The position numbers were made by a program, and so were the translations under genes. From a virus, in the IMG/VR virus record IMGVR_UViG_3300031951_001363, positions 1-21,833 of that record: a DNA stretch of 21,833 bases; one strand, 5' to 3'. Below the pieces are notes generated by a model that did no database searches, was not told the DNA's origin, and saw nothing but the letters and a program-made list of their open reading frames with translations. Within the stretch, counting starts at the first letter, position 1. Each line of letters begins with the position of its first letter. Shown piece after piece: positions 1,768 to 13,574 of this stretch.

Positions 1768-4143
1768 TTATGACACAGCAAATTGTCTCCTAATCATCCT
1801 TATAGGATCTACATTAGAAGCAGCTAATTGAGCAGCAGATGGTAATTGTTGAGATTGTTGGTTGTTAACAATTATATTACTATTATTGTTAGGTTGGTTG
1901 TTATTAAAGACTGATGCTAATTTTAAAATAGCATTACTTAAATTTTTAATGGTTTCATTAGTATTTGCTGTATTACTTGCGATAGTTCCTAAAAGATCAT
2001 TACTAATTTTAAATCCTTCAGGTGACATATATTTGTCTAAAGGAATAACTGCTTCAGGACCTGCTTCACCTATTAGTGCTACAGTAGGAGAGGTTGCAAT
2101 TGCTCCGTCTTCTGCGGCAGGAATCTTCGTTTCTGTTACTGTTGCTTCTTTGTTGTTTTTGTCTTGTGGACTCTGTGAAACGTTAATTTCTGTTTCTGGT
2201 GTTGAAGTAGGGGTTTGTTGTGTTGGAGTAGCTTCAGGTGGTTTTATGTCTTCTAAAGCTTTTTGATCATACCCAGCTGCACCTGCAATTTTTTCTGCAA
2301 GCCATCCTTCAGCTTTAATAGTGGTACCAGGAGGAATGGGTAATCCTAATTTTTGTGCAATTAACGCTCTGACAGGAAAACCGAGAATAGTGTCTGGTAT
2401 TAAACTTAAAGCATTATCTAAAAATTTTTGTTTGATAGTTTTACTAATATCTTCAAATAATCCAGCGACAGAACCAAAGAGATCACCAGATGCAGCTGCG
2501 CCCGCTGCCTTATTTATAGAAGATTCCAAATTATCAGTTCCTAATAAATCTACTATCCACCCCAGACCAGGAGTCATTTTGGCAATATCTACCAATGCAC
2601 CTCCAGGATCTCCCCCCATAAATTTTTCTCCTATTTTCACCCACATCCCAAAAATAGGTTTAAGTTTACCCATAATAGTATCGGTAATCAAATTACGGAA
2701 ATCTATTACTTTGCCTCCTACAGTATTTCCTACTTCTGTTACTTTTTCTTCACCACCCATTAAATCCACAACCCACCCCATATAAGGTATAGTTTTACAT
2801 ATATCTACAATAACATCTCCAATTTTACCATCCATCCATTTTTTGCCAATTTCACCAACCCAGCCCATAGCATTGGTAATTTTTTCAAAAATAAAATCTT
2901 TAACACCCTTTAAGAAATTTATAGATTGTCCACCCGCAGTATCACCAGCTTGAGTTACTACTTCTTCTCCTCCCATTAAATCTACAACCCAACCCATTCC
3001 AGGTACAAATTTAGCTACTTCAACAAATGCTTCACCCCATTTACCTTCAATAAATTTTTTACCCAAGTCAGCAACCCAAGTAAAAGCAGCACTAAGTTTT
3101 TCTCCAATAACGTCATATATCTTTCCAAAGAAATCGCCAATCATTCCCATTTTAGTTTTGCTTGCTTCTCCTGTAGCACCACCAGCTTTGTAATCCAAGA
3201 AGGCATTAAGAACATCTAAACCAATAGAGATCGCTGTGCCTACACCAGGAATTATAGAAGCAATACCAGATAATACATCAATAATACCACCAACTACATC
3301 TCCGGATTTAAATCTAGTATAAGCAAAACTTAAACTAATAACAGTACCAACTAAAGGTAAACGTTTTAAAAGAGGGGTAATAAATTTTACCAAACCTCCA
3401 AGCATCTTTGTAAGCAACCCAGGAGTTTTAGCTATAACCCCTGTAAGAGTTTTAGATACACCTTTACCAAAAACACCTCTCAATGCTTTGTAAGCAGATT
3501 GAAAAAGTTTAATAGGAGCACCAATAAAAGATTTTAAATTTTTAATAAGACTTAAAGCTCCTTTTTCTAAAAGTTTTAAACCTCCCATAATACCCACTTT
3601 ACTTAAAATCTTTAATAATCCTTTAAATGGTCCTTCCGTATTAAGTCCTGTAATTAAAGCAGCAAGACCTCCTAACAATAAAGTAATACCACCACCAGCC
3701 ATTAATGCTCCTCCTAATAATTTAGATATACCAGGAGGTAATAAATCTAAAAGACTTCCTCCCTTTTTACCTTCTTCTTTTTTATCTAATTTTTTGAGGT
3801 CTATAATACCTTTTAAAATGTCTGGAAGCTTTCTGGCTAAATCTTTATAACCTTCATCTGTAATACCTCCAATTAAAACTACTTTTGGTTTCTCTTCATC
3901 TGCGATCAAATCCTTTTCTTTTGACGGAGATGATTTGTTTGAGAATATGGGAGCGATAATATTACCTAATATACCGCCTGGTTTAGATGATTTATCTACA
4001 GGTTGTTTTGTTTTTTTACTCAATGAAGCTTCTGCTAATTTAGAAGCTTTTTGAATAACCTGTTTCAAAAAATCTTGACTCAGATCAAACTTACCAAGTG
4101 TTGTTTGATCTTTAAGGGTATTAGTTTGATTATCTCCTAACAT
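1768..4143 (-). CDS. 29: Tail tape measure protein, gp29-like
   Basis: A 791-residue protein, the largest in the window, with ATG start. It should lie inside the tail tube, set its length and be ejected ahead of DNA. The N-terminal 130 residues are charged. From about 133 to 315 there are glycine-rich hydrophobic helices that could cross a membrane (about 142-165 and 285-310). Residues 338-549 hold three 72-residue repeats. Residues 633-690 are a Pro/Thr/Ser/Glu-rich linker. At 692-702 is IGEAGPEAVIPL, a motif common near the C-terminus of tape measure proteins, followed by an Asn/Gln-rich tail. The gene lies between two gp26/gp51-like genes and the tube-junction gene, the expected place. Using the usual rule of about 1.5 angstrom per residue, the tail would be near 115-120 nm; this is inference. 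Confidence 0.88.
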   Translation of the reverse strand: MLGDNQTNTLKDQTTLGKFDLSQDFLKQVIQKASKLAEASLSKKTKQPVDKSSKPGGILGNIIAPIFSNKSSPSKEKDLIADEEKPKVVLIGGITDEGYKDLARKLPDILKGIIDLKKLDKKEEGKKGGSLLDLLPPGISKLLGGALMAGGGITLLLGGLAALITGLNTEGPFKGLLKILSKVGIMGGLKLLEKGALSLIKNLKSFIGAPIKLFQSAYKALRGVFGKGVSKTLTGVIAKTPGLLTKMLGGLVKFITPLLKRLPLVGTVISLSFAYTRFKSGDVVGGIIDVLSGIASIIPGVGTAISIGLDVLNAFLDYKAGGATGEASKTKMGMIGDFFGKIYDVIGEKLSAAFTWVADLGKKFIEGKWGEAFVEVAKFVPGMGWVVDLMGGEEVVTQAGDTAGGQSINFLKGVKDFIFEKITNAMGWVGEIGKKWMDGKIGDVIVDICKTIPYMGWVVDLMGGEEKVTEVGNTVGGKVIDFRNLITDTIMGKLKPIFGMWVKIGEKFMGGDPGGALVDIAKMTPGLGWIVDLLGTDNLESSINKAAGAAASGDLFGSVAGLFEDISKTIKQKFLDNALSLIPDTILGFPVRALIAQKLGLPIPPGTTIKAEGWLAEKIAGAAGYDQKALEDIKPPEATPTQQTPTSTPETEINVSQSPQDKNNKEATVTETKIPAAEDGAIATSPTVALIGEAGPEAVIPLDKYMSPEGFKISNDLLGTIASNTANTNETIKNLSNAILKLASVFNNNQPNNNSNIIVNNQQSQQLPSAAQLAASNVDPIRMIRRQFAVS
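2497..3132 (-). repeat. Three tandem 72-residue repeats inside the tape measure gene
   Basis: Residues about 338-405, 410-477 and 482-549 of the tape measure protein align at an exact 72-residue spacing. The anchor is a W-(V/I)-V-D-L-(M/L)-G segment starting at residues 385, 457 and 529. Each unit has a helix start with F, then W-V, then G-K-K-(F/W) or G-E-K-F, then a P-x-(M/L)-G-W turn before the anchor. Copies 1 and 2 also share GGEE and GNT/GDT-x-GG; copy 3 has decayed there. A weaker PGVG-containing segment near residues 280-305 may be an older copy. Confidence 0.85.
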
Positions 4144-9528: not shown

Positions 9529-10149
9529 TTAGGTCATTTTTTGTGCGTTATAAATTACATCCAACTGACTAAACTGGAATTGTACTGAAGATTTTATGTT
9601 CGTTGCATCATTGTAATCATAGTTAATAGCACCTAGACCTGTGATAAATGCTCCTGAGTAACGAAATTCAATTACTGTTTTATTATATTCATCTTTAGAC
9701 AATAAAGAAAAAATAGATTGATATTCTGTAAGTGTACCATTCTCAATTCGATCCTTCCAAGATTCTGGATCTGTACCCGCATACATTGATTGTAAAGGAT
9801 CACTTAATATTGATAACCATTTCCACAAGATGTAATAATTTTTAAATCTATTATCTACTACAAAATTTACATTTAATGGAGGATAATTTGGACGACTATA
9901 TGAAGTTACATTGTAGGTTTGACCTGAAAAAGGAACTTCTTGTGGTGGTACTAAAATATCAGGAACAATAGTACCAAAAATAGTCAATTGCAACGGATCT
10001 ACCGAAATAGTAGGATCAGTAGAAGCCATTTTTCTCATAATTCTAGGTAAGTTTAAAACAAGAACAAATTTATCTTTTGTTCCCATGTTTAATGGTGACT
10101 GTTGTTGCGGATTACCTAAACTACAAAGATCTACTGGTTCGGGATTCAT
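9529..10149 (-). CDS. Tail-tube-fold protein between terminase and sheath (third gp19-like paralog)
   Basis: I choose the ATG at 10149-10147 (MNPEPVDLCS...), giving 206 residues. This start overlaps the terminase stop as ATGA, a classic coupled arrangement, and is better than the in-frame GTG at 10161 further inside the terminase gene. After FVLVLNLPRIMRK the protein has PPLNVNFVVDNRFKNYYILW and ends with YSGAFITGLGAINYDYND and V-Q-F-Q-F-S-Q-L-D-V. This last part matches the C-terminal pattern of the tail tube protein and T4 gp19 (GA-x-x-x-x-(V/L)-G, then alternating aromatic residues). T4 has no gene between 17 and 18. It could be a terminal tube ring or tail-neck protein; that is inference. 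Confidence 0.55.
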   Translation of the reverse strand: MNPEPVDLCSLGNPQQQSPLNMGTKDKFVLVLNLPRIMRKMASTDPTISVDPLQLTIFGTIVPDILVPPQEVPFSGQTYNVTSYSRPNYPPLNVNFVVDNRFKNYYILWKWLSILSDPLQSMYAGTDPESWKDRIENGTLTEYQSIFSLLSKDEYNKTVIEFRYSGAFITGLGAINYDYNDATNIKSSVQFQFSQLDVIYNAQKMT

Positions 10150-11666
10150 AATGCTTTCCACCCTTCTCCCATAAGATCAAAAAAATCTTTATCTTCTTCA
10201 GGAAAAAGATTTTTATCATTAAACAAAGAAGACGGAGTTGTTGTTTGTTGTTGTAAAGATGACATTGAAATTAAAGGAGTAATTGTTTCTGTATTACTTA
10301 ATTCTTTAACACCATATAATCGTGAATCCTTGTCCCAATATCCTATGTCAGATATTCTAGAAGGTTTTCCTTGATCGTCAAAATCATCTACTTGAAAGTA
10401 TTGTTGGCAAATTTCTGTTTCTAAAATAAACAAAGTCCATACTAACGCCATAACACGATCATCGTAAAAATTGTCATTCTTTTTACGATAAGTTCCGTTT
10501 GGGTATTTAATAAAAGTTTCTAATTCTTTAATAGTATCAATATCATTAATTTGTACACATTGTAATGTATTTGTCCAATATCTCATATTAGAGACACCAG
10601 CAAATCTTAAATTGGTGTGTGATAAAATTCCTAAATGTCTGGTGGTTTGTTGTGTGGTTGAAGATATTTTAGAACATGATACTATTTTTTCATATTCATG
10701 TTTGTGGTACAGTGCATCAATAACTTGACCACCACAATTATTTCTTTCTACTAATAATGGCGGATTTCCCCATTGACCACACAATTTCACCAAATTATTA
10801 GCAAAGTGATAAGGTTCAATAGAATTATCTCCATAAATTGCTACTTGTTTAATATCTTTTAAATCAGTTATATCTAATACTTGAGCAACAGATGCAGCTC
10901 TTCCTATACCTTCACCAACATCCACCCCGATAGCATAAAATTTTTGCTGATCTGGTAATTCAAAAACTCTATAAGTGTCATTATCTAAACTATAGATAGG
11001 TGTTTTTCTATTTTCTTTGAATCTTTCAATAATTTGAGCACCCACTGCAGAATTACCGCCATCTAAAAACACATTTCCAAATTCTTGTAAAAATGCTTCT
11101 TCAGAACCAAGGGTGGCTATCATTTGTTCTTTCCATCTATCAGTTCTTCCAGGAATGTCCCACCAATCTACTCTTTCGGCTTTCCAAGTACTCTTACCTC
11201 TTTCAGCTGCAGAATAAACCTCATAAAATTTATTGTCGGTGCCGTTTGGTGTAGAGACTGCAAATATTTTAGATTTTTTACCGGAAGAAATAACAGGAAT
11301 AACAGATTTCCAGAAGTCCTCAATAAGATGTGTATTGTGGTGTAAAATTTCATTTGCATAAAAAACATGCCCGTCATCAACATCAACTATATCATATACA
11401 TAATTCTTATCTATTTTTTCTTTTTTTATAACAATTTCTAAACCGTCTTTTGTTTGAATTTGTTTATTAAGACAATTTTTACACAAAATTTTATTATTAT
11501 TTTTGTCTAAAAATGCATGATTAGCAGATACAATTACATTTTTGTTTTTTTCTGTGGTTACTAAATACAATACCTTTTTACTATATTTTTTTACTCCTTT
11601 AAATTTTTTCCAACCTGTTGGTGTTTCAATAGACCAATCATCTATATTAAATTTTTCATTGTCCAT
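10146..11666 (-). CDS. 17: C-intein plus C-terminal part of terminase large subunit (split gp17)
   Basis: A 506-residue ORF with ATG start. Residues 1-111 are a C-intein (separate entry). Residues 112-506 (395 residues) are the rest of the terminase: FWKSVIPVISSGKKSKIF and VSTPNGT (138-143) match the ATPase coupling motif after Walker B in T4 gp17 (PVISSGRRSKI, TTTPNG). The RNase H-like nuclease carries D249 in AIGVDVGEG, E307 in LLVERNN and D402/D403 in NFYDDRVMALVW, matching T4 D401, E458 and D542. On its own this ORF lacks both Walker motifs, so it cannot be a working packaging motor without joining to the upstream half. Its start overlaps the end of the endonuclease gene by 11 nt. It gives 599 terminase residues after splicing, near T4's 610. 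Confidence 0.95.
   Translation of the reverse strand: MDNEKFNIDDWSIETPTGWKKFKGVKKYSKKVLYLVTTEKNKNVIVSANHAFLDKNNNKILCKNCLNKQIQTKDGLEIVIKKEKIDKNYVYDIVDVDDGHVFYANEILHHNTHLIEDFWKSVIPVISSGKKSKIFAVSTPNGTDNKFYEVYSAAERGKSTWKAERVDWWDIPGRTDRWKEQMIATLGSEEAFLQEFGNVFLDGGNSAVGAQIIERFKENRKTPIYSLDNDTYRVFELPDQQKFYAIGVDVGEGIGRAASVAQVLDITDLKDIKQVAIYGDNSIEPYHFANNLVKLCGQWGNPPLLVERNNCGGQVIDALYHKHEYEKIVSCSKISSTTQQTTRHLGILSHTNLRFAGVSNMRYWTNTLQCVQINDIDTIKELETFIKYPNGTYRKKNDNFYDDRVMALVWTLFILETEICQQYFQVDDFDDQGKPSRISDIGYWDKDSRLYGVKELSNTETITPLISMSSLQQQTTTPSSLFNDKNLFPEEDKDFFDLMGEGWKAL
11334..11666 (-). other. C-intein (IntC), 111 residues, of an atypically split intein
   Basis: Residues 1-111 of the downstream terminase ORF have no terminase counterpart. 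They contain a block B-like segment NVIVSANHAFL with S47-x-x-H50 (usual form Thr-x-x-His), a block F-like segment YDIVDVDDGHVFYANEILHH and block G ending His109-His110-Asn111, with Thr112 as first C-extein residue. With the 33-residue N part the total is 144 residues, mini-intein size. Because block B lies in this half, the break is near the N-terminus (site S1), as in the AceL-TerL intein, unlike the usual DnaE-type split. Confidence 0.9.
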
Positions 11667-12852
11667 AAAAATTAAATTCTTTTTCTGTTATTACTTTATA
11701 TGTTGCATTATTTTTTAGACACCAATTTTTTAAAAAATTTATTTTAGCTTTTGTTTTTTCGTCTATTAGTAAATTTGAAGGTTTAATTTCTATCGCTATC
11801 CTTTTTATTGGGTCCCAAAAATCAACAATATATATTTTTTTCTCATTATTATAGTAATACTCGATTCTTAAAGTTTCATATTCTAAATGCGTATTTTGTT
11901 CGTGAAAAATTAATTCCCAACTACTTCGATATGTTTGTATATTTGTAATTTCACTTTTAAGTCTTTTATGATTAAGACGATTTTGGGTACAAGGAGTAAA
12001 TTCCCCGTTAAAAATTTTATTTTTCATAATTTCTGACATTCTTTCAGAAATTTTATTTTCAATTATTTGTTCTTGCTGTTTTTGTTTTCTTTCTTCTGTC
12101 CAAATTTTTTTATTAGATTCTTTGATTTTTTGTTTAGTTTCTTCACTGTGTTTATAATTTTTTTTAGCTAAAAGTCTTTTTCTTTGAATTTCTTCTGTAA
12201 ATAAAAATGATATATCTTTAATTTTTGCTGCTTCAGATAAACAATCATGTTTGCATTTTTTGTTATTACAAGTTTTTAACAAATAATTAAATGATTTTAT
12301 TTCTTTAAGCGAACCACATTTACAAAAACATCCAGAACCATAAAAATAAAAAATAATTTTTTCAAAATTATTTTTTAAAATTTCGGGAAATTGTCTATTA
12401 AAAACAAAATTTAATAGATTTTTATCCATTATAAATTTTTTATAAGATACTTTTTTAATATAATTTTTTATTTTTTCTTTTACTGTTTTATCATTTAATG
12501 AAATTTTTTCATTATTGTCTGGTATAAAATTATTCACATTTTCAATAAACCAATTTAATTTTTTTGCGCTATATGTTACCTTTCCTTTTAAGTATCCTTT
12601 AACAAAATTACAAAAACGTTTATCCGGAATATTTTCTGGGGGGATATTCCAATATATATGATAATATTTTTGTGCTAAAGGAGCATTTTCTAAAACAGTA
12701 CCATTAAAATAATTTTGAATGTAAAAAAATATTTCTTTTTTATTTCTTAGTGCGTAAAAATTTTCATAATAAACATTTTTATTGAGTTTATTATTACATT
12801 CTGTTGTAAAAAAATTTATAATTTTTTGACGTATAATACTTTTGTCGAGCAT
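11656..12852 (-). CDS. Putative homing endonuclease between split-intein halves (zinc-ribbon, NUMOD3-like, PD-(D/E)XK/Vsr-like)
   Basis: A 398-residue protein with ATG start, very rich in Lys, Asn and Ile. It sits 8 nt after the N half of the terminase and overlaps the C half by 11 nt, in the same direction. The N-terminal 165 residues have no motif I recognise. Residues 175-204 carry six cysteines (175, 177, 179, 195, 200, 204) that could form a zinc ribbon. Residues 232-265 (KHSEETKQKIKESNKKIW and on) resemble the NUMOD3 DNA-binding motif of phage homing endonucleases. The C-terminus has YRSSWE (E313), VDFW (D344) and EIKP (E355, K357), a PD-(D/E)XK arrangement like Vsr-type nucleases. Vsr-like enzymes (I-Bth0305I family) are known in fractured split-intein genes. 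A CATAAATA element lies 5 nt upstream. It probably cuts intein-less terminase alleles; that is inference. Confidence 0.85.
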   Translation of the reverse strand: MLDKSIIRQKIINFFTTECNNKLNKNVYYENFYALRNKKEIFFYIQNYFNGTVLENAPLAQKYYHIYWNIPPENIPDKRFCNFVKGYLKGKVTYSAKKLNWFIENVNNFIPDNNEKISLNDKTVKEKIKNYIKKVSYKKFIMDKNLLNFVFNRQFPEILKNNFEKIIFYFYGSGCFCKCGSLKEIKSFNYLLKTCNNKKCKHDCLSEAAKIKDISFLFTEEIQRKRLLAKKNYKHSEETKQKIKESNKKIWTEERKQKQQEQIIENKISERMSEIMKNKIFNGEFTPCTQNRLNHKRLKSEITNIQTYRSSWELIFHEQNTHLEYETLRIEYYYNNEKKIYIVDFWDPIKRIAIEIKPSNLLIDEKTKAKINFLKNWCLKNNATYKVITEKEFNFYGQ

Positions 12853-12857
12853 AATTT

Positions 12858-12865
12858 TATTTATG
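12858..12865 (-). promoter_or_regulatory. Late-promoter-like or initiation element CATAAATA before the endonuclease gene
   Basis: The minus strand reads CATAAATA, one base from the T4 late octamer, ending 5 nt before the endonuclease ATG, the same spacing as at three other starts in the window. It overlaps the stop codon of the N-terminal terminase half. It may allow separate expression of the endonuclease late in infection, or act in translation initiation. Confidence 0.3.
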
Positions 12866-13574
12866 CATTTTGGAGTGATTTATATAATTCTTCAATATGT
12901 ATATTTTTTATCTCACCCGTTTTTTCATTTTTTAATTTAATGGTCGTGTCACCAGCTAAACACTCAATAAACGCCATTTCGTCAATAATAAGGGATGAAA
13001 TACTTTCACCTCTTACTGCGGTAGAGGTTGTTGTACTAACACCAATACTAGAATCATTATCGAATGTTAAACCAGTTTTACCATATTCTTTGACACCCGG
13101 CTTTAAAAAATTTGGTAGTTGTTCATAAGCTAATCTTATTCTTTTAAATACATTGATAGCTGTTTGTTCTCTATTGGCAACTACCATGATTCTTTGATCT
13201 GATTCAAAACAAGCTAACCAAAGAGCATAAATGGTCATTAATGTAGTTTTACCGAATTGTCGACAAGACAATAAGATAGTAAATCTGTTATTAATTAAAG
13301 ATCGAAGTATCTGTTTTTGTCTGGTGTAGAGGTTAATAACTTCTTTACCTCTATCAAGATTTACTATATAAAAATAATTTTCTGCAAAGTAAATAATATC
13401 ATCTTTACATTTTTTGAGTTCTTCCACCATTTTAGGTGTCCACTCAAATTGTGCTTCAGATTTAGGAACATTTTTATCTCCTCGATAATATTGAAAATCA
13501 TTAATAGGATTTTCGAAAATATCTGGGAATGTTTCTACTGATGGAATTATTTCTTGTTTTTTCTTACGACCCAC
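12861..13574 (-). CDS. 17: N-terminal ATPase part of terminase large subunit plus N-intein (split gp17)
   Basis: A 237-residue ORF; the start is GTG at 13574-13572, with no better ATG between it and the stop of the gene upstream. Residues 46-63 (WTPKMVEELKKCKDDIIY) match the adenine-binding approach of T4 gp17 (WTREMVEEWKKCRDDIVY). Walker A is SCRQFGKTT (103-111) and Walker B with catalytic acid is SLIIDE (194-199), both as in T4 gp17. At residue 205, one residue after AFIE, terminase sequence stops and a 33-residue N-intein starts with CLAGDT, running to the stop. The N-extein is 204 residues. It lacks the long N-terminal extension of T4 gp17. Alone, it has the nucleotide-binding motifs but neither the coupling motif nor the nuclease. 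Confidence 0.95.
   Translation of the reverse strand: MGRKKKQEIIPSVETFPDIFENPINDFQYYRGDKNVPKSEAQFEWTPKMVEELKKCKDDIIYFAENYFYIVNLDRGKEVINLYTRQKQILRSLINNRFTILLSCRQFGKTTLMTIYALWLACFESDQRIMVVANREQTAINVFKRIRLAYEQLPNFLKPGVKEYGKTGLTFDNDSSIGVSTTTSTAVRGESISSLIIDEMAFIECLAGDTTIKLKNEKTGEIKNIHIEELYKSLQNA
12864..12962 (-). other. N-intein (IntN), 33 residues, of an atypically split intein
   Basis: Residues 205-237 of the upstream terminase ORF. It starts with Cys205 (codon TGT at 12962-12960) in the block A pattern CLAGDT, followed by an alternating charged and hydrophobic segment and IEELYKSL at the end. Normal split inteins have about 100 residues in this half; 33 is unusually short but similar to the 25-residue N part of AceL-TerL. 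Cys as residue 1 can make the first acyl shift. Confidence 0.9.

What the first reader, a model, noticed from the sequence alone, without database searches (positions are those of the whole stretch)
11656..12852. Complete homing-endonuclease-like gene between the two intein halves (fractured gene)
Seen: a 398-residue ORF lies exactly between the halves, same strand, 8 nt after one and overlapping the other by 11 nt. It has six Cys in 175-204, a NUMOD3-like stretch (232-265) and E313, D344 and E355-x-K357 in PD-(D/E)XK order. Known: fractured genes with split inteins flanking Vsr-like endonucleases (I-Bth0305I family) have been described. Inference: the combination of an atypically split intein and this N-terminal architecture (large unknown domain plus zinc ribbon) may be a distinct subtype.
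Basis: partly seen in the sequence, partly recalled or inferred. Interest (0 to 1): 0.82.

Follow-up and report, generated by a model that had tools for sequence, protein, structure and literature searches.

The report
Homing nuclease splitting phage terminase gene
A phage's DNA-packaging motor gene has been broken in two by a selfish DNA-cutting gene flanked by two protein-splicing half-tags; the arrangement is a real, recurring one, and this nuclease family turns out to sit almost always in the same active-site codons of quite different phage motor genes, with this phage as one of two exceptions found.

Summary
In detail: TerL-N+IntN (13574..12861), an intact 398-aa ORF (12852..11656) and IntC+TerL-C (11666..10146) on one strand, with an 8-nt gap and an 11-nt overlap. 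It is a fractured gene. Intein-free relatives (73-78% identical) read MAFIE-(N/P)HLI(E/D)DFW, so the block is inserted precisely, with Thr at +1. IntN/IntC are an atypically split (33+111 aa) TerL intein.

The endonuclease is not Vsr/I-Bth0305I-like. It is a TnsA/T4-gp4-like PD-(D/E)XK nuclease with zinc-ribbon-like cysteines and NUMOD3. E313, D344, E355 and K357 are (nearly) invariant in 36 relatives. The same family lies between split-intein halves in cultured T4-like phages and about 50 other contigs, in TerL, UvsW-like helicases, clamp loaders and PhoH. The insertion is almost always directly after Walker B (GAYGAR|TGY, DE|C). This window is one of two exceptions, five codons downstream; no other contig with this insertion site was found.

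Verdict: new variant of a known kind. The Walker-B association, a nuclease that changes host ATPase genes, and natural intermediates (nuclease fused to IntN, eroded, or halves 27 kb apart) make it more interesting than the single locus. Cleavage and splicing are untested.

The parts
12963..13574 (-). TerL N-terminal extein (ATPase half, GTG start), ends ...LIIDEMAFIE
   Evidence: Terminase_6N E=5e-7, PHROG 5989 terminase large subunit 2.6e-57; coordinates
12978..12983 (-). Walker B Asp-Glu codons (GACGAA) of TerL: the place where nearly all other family members carry their intein
   Evidence: sequence; family comparison
12864..12962 (-). IntN, 33 aa, CLAGDTTIKLKNEKTGEIKNIHIEELYKSLQNA, nucleophile Cys1
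12858..12864 (-). ATAAATA element (T4 late-promoter-like) 5 nt before the endonuclease ATG; the same heptamer precedes four structural-gene starts
   Evidence: match to a consensus only, not evidence of activity
11656..12852 (-). Free-standing TnsA/gp4-like PD-(D/E)XK putative homing endonuclease, 398 aa
12241..12330 (-). Cysteine cluster, residues 175-204 (zinc-ribbon-like; metal binding not shown)
   Evidence: CxxC clusters also in relatives
12109..12159 (-). NUMOD3 motif, residues 232-248
   Evidence: PF07460 E=0.0025
11668..12051 (-). Nuclease domain, residues 268-395: RSSWE313...D344F...E355-I-K357-P, alpha-beta-beta-beta-alpha-beta
   Evidence: AF2 mean pLDDT 90.6 for the domain; invariant columns
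11334..11666 (-). IntC, 111 aa, ends ILHHN; its ATG overlaps the endonuclease end by 11 nt
   Evidence: PDB matches: gp41-1 intein 1e-7, CatC 3.7e-6
10146..11333 (-). TerL C-terminal extein, starts Thr+1 (THLIEDFWKSV), plus stop
   Evidence: PHROG 2 terminase E=9.9e-21; empty-site homologues

Best explanation
This is a fractured gene. A mobile block IntN-endonuclease-IntC sits inside the large-terminase gene of a T4-like phage. The two TerL halves are made as separate proteins and re-joined by protein trans-splicing through an atypically split intein (33 + 111 aa), leaving MAFIE-T-HLIEDFW. The free-standing ORF is a TnsA/gp4-like PD-(D/E)XK homing endonuclease that is expected to cut intein-free terL alleles of co-infecting phages near this site, after which recombination copies the whole block and converts the +1 codon to Thr. 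Shown by sequence: the architecture, the precise insertion against empty homologues, intact intein and nuclease motifs, recurrence of the same nuclease between split-intein halves in four ATPase gene types, and its loss or decay in some loci. Inferred: trans-splicing, DNA cleavage, homing.
For: Gene order and overlaps. Empty-site TerLs L095-L097 and L117, 73-78% identical over the C half. IntN/IntC homologous to atypically split TerL inteins (best L037, E=2e-26) and to solved gp41-1/CatC inteins; Cys1, SANH, HHN and Thr+1 all present. Base composition: exteins 31-32% GC, IntN 27%, endonuclease 21%, IntC 23%, so the change falls at the splice junctions. Nuclease fold and invariant catalytic residues. 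Same order TerLN-IntN / nuclease / IntC-TerLC in cultured phages HY03, PspYZU05, phiR1-RT and SEA1 and in many contigs. The nuclease has repeatedly changed host gene (9 changes on the tree, minimum 3; TerL rows as one clade rejected, p-AU 0.010). No Rfam intron in the region at E<=1.
Against: No activity was tested. The window is a 21.8-kb fragment, and no second contig carries the intein at this exact site, so movement into this site cannot be followed between close relatives. The window nuclease is a long branch with unresolved place, and most of its N-terminal 200 residues are modelled below pLDDT 50. The Pfam matches of the window protein itself are just under the curated cut-offs.
Confidence: 0.83

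Rival explanations
1. The nuclease no longer homes: the split terL persists because precise loss is rare, and the ORF is a decaying passenger or has been co-opted.
For: Decay is seen elsewhere: the same TerL intein with a 129-aa nuclease remnant (L132) or with the nuclease gone and a 153-nt gap (L129-L131); further nuclease-less ones L146, L159. The window protein has the longest terminal branch among the TerL-associated rows.
Against: The window ORF is full length, all catalytic residues are kept, the domain folds confidently and its stop is coupled to the IntC start.
Confidence: 0.25
2. The nuclease is a Vsr-like EDxHD enzyme of the I-Bth0305I kind that is typical of the first described fractured genes.
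For: Same overall fold class; I-Bth0305I catalytic domain appears in the fold searches (TMt 0.51-0.54).
Against: TnsA ranks first in both PDB fold searches (prob 1.00) and in Pfam; no Vsr hit in 36 members; catalytic pattern is E...D...ExK; PHROG neighbours are gp4-type 'head closure' proteins.
Confidence: 0.06
3. The gene is simply broken (pseudogene, frameshifts or assembly chimera) and the phage makes TerL elsewhere or not at all.
For: The window is a fragment from an uncultured-virus collection.
Against: The same arrangement recurs in independent contigs and in complete genomes of cultured phages; both halves are conserved and in frame up to the junctions; close relatives show an exact empty site.
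Confidence: 0.02
4. Two separate histories: a TerL-type split intein whose endonuclease was replaced by one from a helicase-associated lineage, rather than one block that moved together. (A refinement of the best explanation, not an exclusive alternative.)
For: The intein is nearest to TerL inteins L037/L017, but the nuclease is nearest by path to helicase-associated L014-L016. In the same atypically split inteins other loci hold GIY-YIG, DUF7487 or DUF559-type nucleases, so swapping happens. Sister phage L094 carries a GIY-YIG one about a dozen residues upstream of the window's site.
Against: The placement has no support in the tree; TerL nucleases as a whole are not one clade even without the window (p-AU 0.012).
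Confidence: 0.35

Closest known systems
Fractured genes with split inteins and free-standing homing endonucleases (Dassa et al. 2009, NAR 37:2560; full text not held, recalled from memory; cited in PMC11766414 and PMC10448857)
   Same: Conserved enzyme gene broken by a split intein with a free-standing endonuclease ORF between the halves, in phages
   Different: The new nuclease family described there is Vsr-related (from memory: in about half of the loci); here it is TnsA/gp4-like
Atypically split TerL inteins AceL-TerL, GOS-TerL and the engineered Cat intein (PMC11766414; PDB 6DSL)
   Same: Same host gene, short IntN (25-37 aa natural) and long IntC (about 104 aa); IntC homologous to CatC (E=3.7e-6 window, 5e-12 HY03)
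   Different: Window uses Thr+1 and sits five residues downstream of the usual TerL DE|C site; +1 is Cys in the Cat construct and in the phage relatives
Same-family nucleases in TerL of Escherichia phage HY03, Yersinia phage phiR1-RT, Pseudomonas phage PspYZU05, Salmonella phage SEA1; fused form in Krischvirus kaaroe and Shewanella phage Thanatos-2
   Same: Same order and overlapping starts, about 40% identical nuclease domain
   Different: Insertion directly after Walker B DE, Cys+1; no 170-aa N-terminal region in the HY03 type (199 aa)
T4 gp4-type head-completion nuclease and Tn7 TnsA
   Same: Closest known folds and sequence families of the nuclease domain
   Different: Not nucleases of inteins; a NUMOD3/cysteine region is not part of those families as known to me
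Mycobacteriophage TerL inteins (mBio 2016, PMC5050341)
   Same: Inteins concentrate in TerL ATPase motifs; endonuclease activity shown there for two TerL inteins
   Different: Contiguous inteins with embedded endonuclease domains, not fractured genes

Membership tests
Fractured gene (split intein + free-standing endonuclease) | Host gene in two ORFs, each ending or beginning with an intein half | tested here: met
Fractured gene (split intein + free-standing endonuclease) | Endonuclease ORF between the halves, own start and stop | tested here: met
Fractured gene (split intein + free-standing endonuclease) | Protein trans-splicing restores the enzyme | not testable with these tools
   splicing residues intact; not assayed
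Fractured gene (split intein + free-standing endonuclease) | Homing into intein-free alleles | not testable with these tools
   precise empty sites exist; no cross possible
Vsr-like/EDxHD endonucleases (I-Bth0305I) | Vsr-type sequence signature or closest fold | tested here: not met
TnsA/gp4-like PD-(D/E)XK nucleases | Profile match to TnsA-like or gp4-type families | tested here: met
   PF08722 26 of 36 members (window 4.9e-5, below cut-off); PHROG 218/14892 head closure 22/21 of 33 members
TnsA/gp4-like PD-(D/E)XK nucleases | alpha-beta-beta-beta-alpha-beta core with E, D, ExK | tested here: met
Atypically split TerL inteins (AceL/GOS-TerL kind) | IntN of about 25-40 aa, IntC above 100 aa, in TerL | tested here: met
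   33 and 111 aa
Atypically split TerL inteins (AceL/GOS-TerL kind) | Sequence kinship of IntC | tested here: met
   CatC 3.7e-6, TerL inteins down to 2e-26
Atypically split TerL inteins (AceL/GOS-TerL kind) | Usual (not defining) site of the relatives: directly after Walker B DE, Cys+1 | tested here: not met
   DEMAFIE|T; empty homologues confirm; a difference of site, not of intein kind
Group I intron with homing endonuclease | Intron RNA structure in the interrupted region | tested here: not met
   no Rfam match at E<=1

The most novel reading that the evidence does not exclude
A homing-endonuclease family specialised on the codons of the Walker B motif: because GAYGAR followed by TGY (or a related codon) codes the catalytic Asp-Glu of many P-loop ATPases, one nuclease lineage with its split intein can jump between unrelated motor genes (TerL, UvsW-type helicase, clamp loader, PhoH), and the window shows such a lineage that has shifted to a new site a few codons away with a different +1 residue.
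Probability: 0.35. Interest if true: 0.8.

Novelty: new variant of a known kind. Interest (0 to 1): 0.62.

Why it matters
It links three things that were known apart: fractured phage genes, the atypically split TerL inteins used in protein engineering, and a nuclease family annotated only as 'endonuclease' or 'TnsA-like'. The set contains natural stages: nuclease fused to IntN in one ORF, fully free-standing, decayed, lost, and halves moved apart. This makes the origin of split inteins directly testable in cultured coliphages. If the Walker-B preference is a property of the nuclease, it would explain how an intein-linked nuclease passes between unrelated genes. The new TerL inteins (Cys1/Thr+1 among them) may also be useful splicing tools.

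Tried and rejected
A close-relative scan of viral contigs with the whole nuclease found none; the alignment of the domain was needed. No relatives in 84,980 bacterial/archaeal genomes at that sensitivity. A search for other inteins at the same TerL site gave nothing. A group I intron was rejected. Position matrices from helicase-type sites placed the window's empty site in roughly the top 1-2% of positions, but with a negative score, few independent targets and the reading frame not controlled for; treated as inconclusive. NCBIfam gave nothing useful. Dassa 2009 and the GOS-TerL paper are not held, so statements about them rest on memory and on reviews. AU tests show only that TerL nucleases are not one clade, not where the window belongs. 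My junction tables used text patterns that look for DEC; loci missed by the pattern were read by eye.

Full report
What is there. On the minus strand of this T4-like virus record (21,833 bases) the terminase large subunit is encoded by two ORFs with a third between them.

Precise insertion. Relatives of the TerL C half in viral contigs include uninterrupted genes: L095, L096, L097 (74-78% identical over the C half) and L117 (73%). They read DEMAFIE-N-HLIEDFW or DEMAFIE-P-HLIDDFW where the window reads DEMAFIE | intein | T-HLIEDFW. No residue is lost or gained; only the +1 residue changes to the nucleophile Thr. GC content drops from 31-32% in both exteins to 27% (IntN), 21% (nuclease) and 23% (IntC), so the change of composition coincides with the splice junctions. 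No intron RNA family is seen.

The intein. IntC matches the solved gp41-1 intein (1e-7) and the consensus atypical TerL intein CatC (3.7e-6). Joined IntN+IntC are closest to TerL inteins L037 and L017 (E about 1e-26 to 1e-23), then to those of phages Thanatos-2, kaaroe and HY03. All have the short-N/long-C split of AceL-TerL and GOS-TerL (described in PMC11766414). A scan with four such inteins gave 59 loci.

The nuclease. Pfam gives TnsA-like N (326-390) and NUMOD3 (232-248). An alignment of 12 phage and window domains keeps R-S-S-(W)-E, D-F and E-x-(K/R)-P, and in 33-36 members the residues E313, D344, E355 and K357 are invariant or nearly so. AlphaFold2 gives a confident domain (mean pLDDT 90.6) in alpha-beta-beta-beta-alpha-beta order. 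TnsA is the best PDB match (prob 1.00, TM by query 0.56-0.57); I-Bth0305I is weak. In the library of viral models the best are annotated as NUMOD3 or TnsA-N proteins of phages, with a head-completion nuclease further down. PHROG profiles link the domain to 'head closure' (T4 gp4-type) families in 21-22 of 33 members. It is therefore TnsA/gp4-like, not Vsr-like. Most of the N-terminal 200 residues of the window protein are modelled poorly and remain unexplained.

Where the family lives. Between split-intein halves of TerL it is found in Escherichia phage HY03, Pseudomonas phage PspYZU05, Yersinia phage phiR1-RT and Salmonella phage SEA1. In kaaroe and Thanatos-2 the nuclease is fused behind TerL-N+IntN in one ORF while IntC-TerL-C is separate, a plausible intermediate. 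It also splits UvsW-type helicases (PM2, NP4, a Lak phage, many contigs), clamp-loader subunits and PhoH. There the intein is split at the usual place (IntN mostly about 95-108 aa), whereas in TerL it is always split after 30-53 aa. In 42 contig loci with readable flanks (34 distinct flank sequences) the insertion is GAYGAR|TGY, Asp-Glu of Walker B followed by Cys; the cultured phages and further TerL loci agree. Loci cut by contig ends (L016, L058) are consistent on the side that is seen; L032 is a real exception with a truncated intein. The window is the other exception. Walker-B sites are not exclusive to this nuclease: DUF7487-type nucleases also occur there in TerL (L141, L147, L161), and other nucleases occupy other TerL sites (L179, L181, L183, L094). 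It is known that inteins favour ATPase motifs, also in TerL (PMC5050341). What I did not find described is one nuclease lineage using the same codons in four unrelated ATPases; the primary fractured-gene paper is not held here, so this is not a claim of priority.

History. On a tree of 57 nuclease domains, host-gene labels need 9 changes (minimum 3; shuffles mean 26), so nucleases cluster by host gene yet have moved between genes several times; TerL-associated ones as one clade are rejected (p-AU about 0.01). The window nuclease has a long branch; its nearest rows by path are helicase-associated but without support. Its sister phage L094 has TerL fractured at another point (ESIN|CLIVDEM) by a GIY-YIG nuclease, again with a short IntN. 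TerL of this phage group is thus a repeated target, and different nucleases occur on a common kind of split intein.

How it works, and how sure. Shown from sequence: insertion, intact splicing motifs, intact catalytic motifs, recurrence, decay. Inferred: trans-splicing restores TerL; the nuclease cuts empty terL in mixed infections and the block is copied with co-conversion of the +1 codon. An ATAAATA heptamer 5 nt before the nuclease ATG is shared with four structural-gene starts (5 of 7 minus-strand copies lie 3-14 nt before a start), which suggests, but does not show, late expression of the nuclease on its own.

Verdict. The finding is real and the core reading (fractured gene) holds; the family assignment of the nuclease is corrected; the novelty is a new variant: a TnsA/gp4-like nuclease family of split inteins with a strong Walker-B habit, of which this window is an off-site member.

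Noticed in passing
L187 1495..2211 (-) and L169 (about 3489 on, +): In two Campylobacter phage records the TerL half with IntN (IFIDE|CVAGDT...) and the half with IntC are unlinked; in the 135-kb record they lie about 27 kb apart, with no nuclease beside them: a natural terminase that would need trans-splicing from separate loci.
   Followed up: partly
L094 2481..5521: Sister phage's TerL is fractured about a dozen residues upstream of the window's site by a GIY-YIG nuclease; its IntC ends HQ instead of HN, and the nuclease start is preceded by a possible hairpin.
   Followed up: partly
L099, L100, L101: Related TerL genes carry a contiguous intein ending THN|TTITTIYALW, at Walker A.
   Followed up: no
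L032 3765..6462: UvsW-like helicase split by the same nuclease family at another place with only intein remnants; possibly a gene in pieces that works without splicing.
   Followed up: no
L129-L132: The same TerL split intein with a truncated (129 aa) or missing nuclease, showing decay after splitting.
   Followed up: partly
window minus strand 5010, 6816, 7388, 9517, 12858: ATAAATA heptamers 3-14 nt before start codons of structural genes and the nuclease; fewer in the window than shuffles predict (8 against 17.9), yet concentrated at starts.
   Followed up: partly
L010 about 2230..3550: In Lak phage B2 the nuclease ORF is open only if TAG is read as Gln, in a helicase split by the intein halves.
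   Followed up: partly
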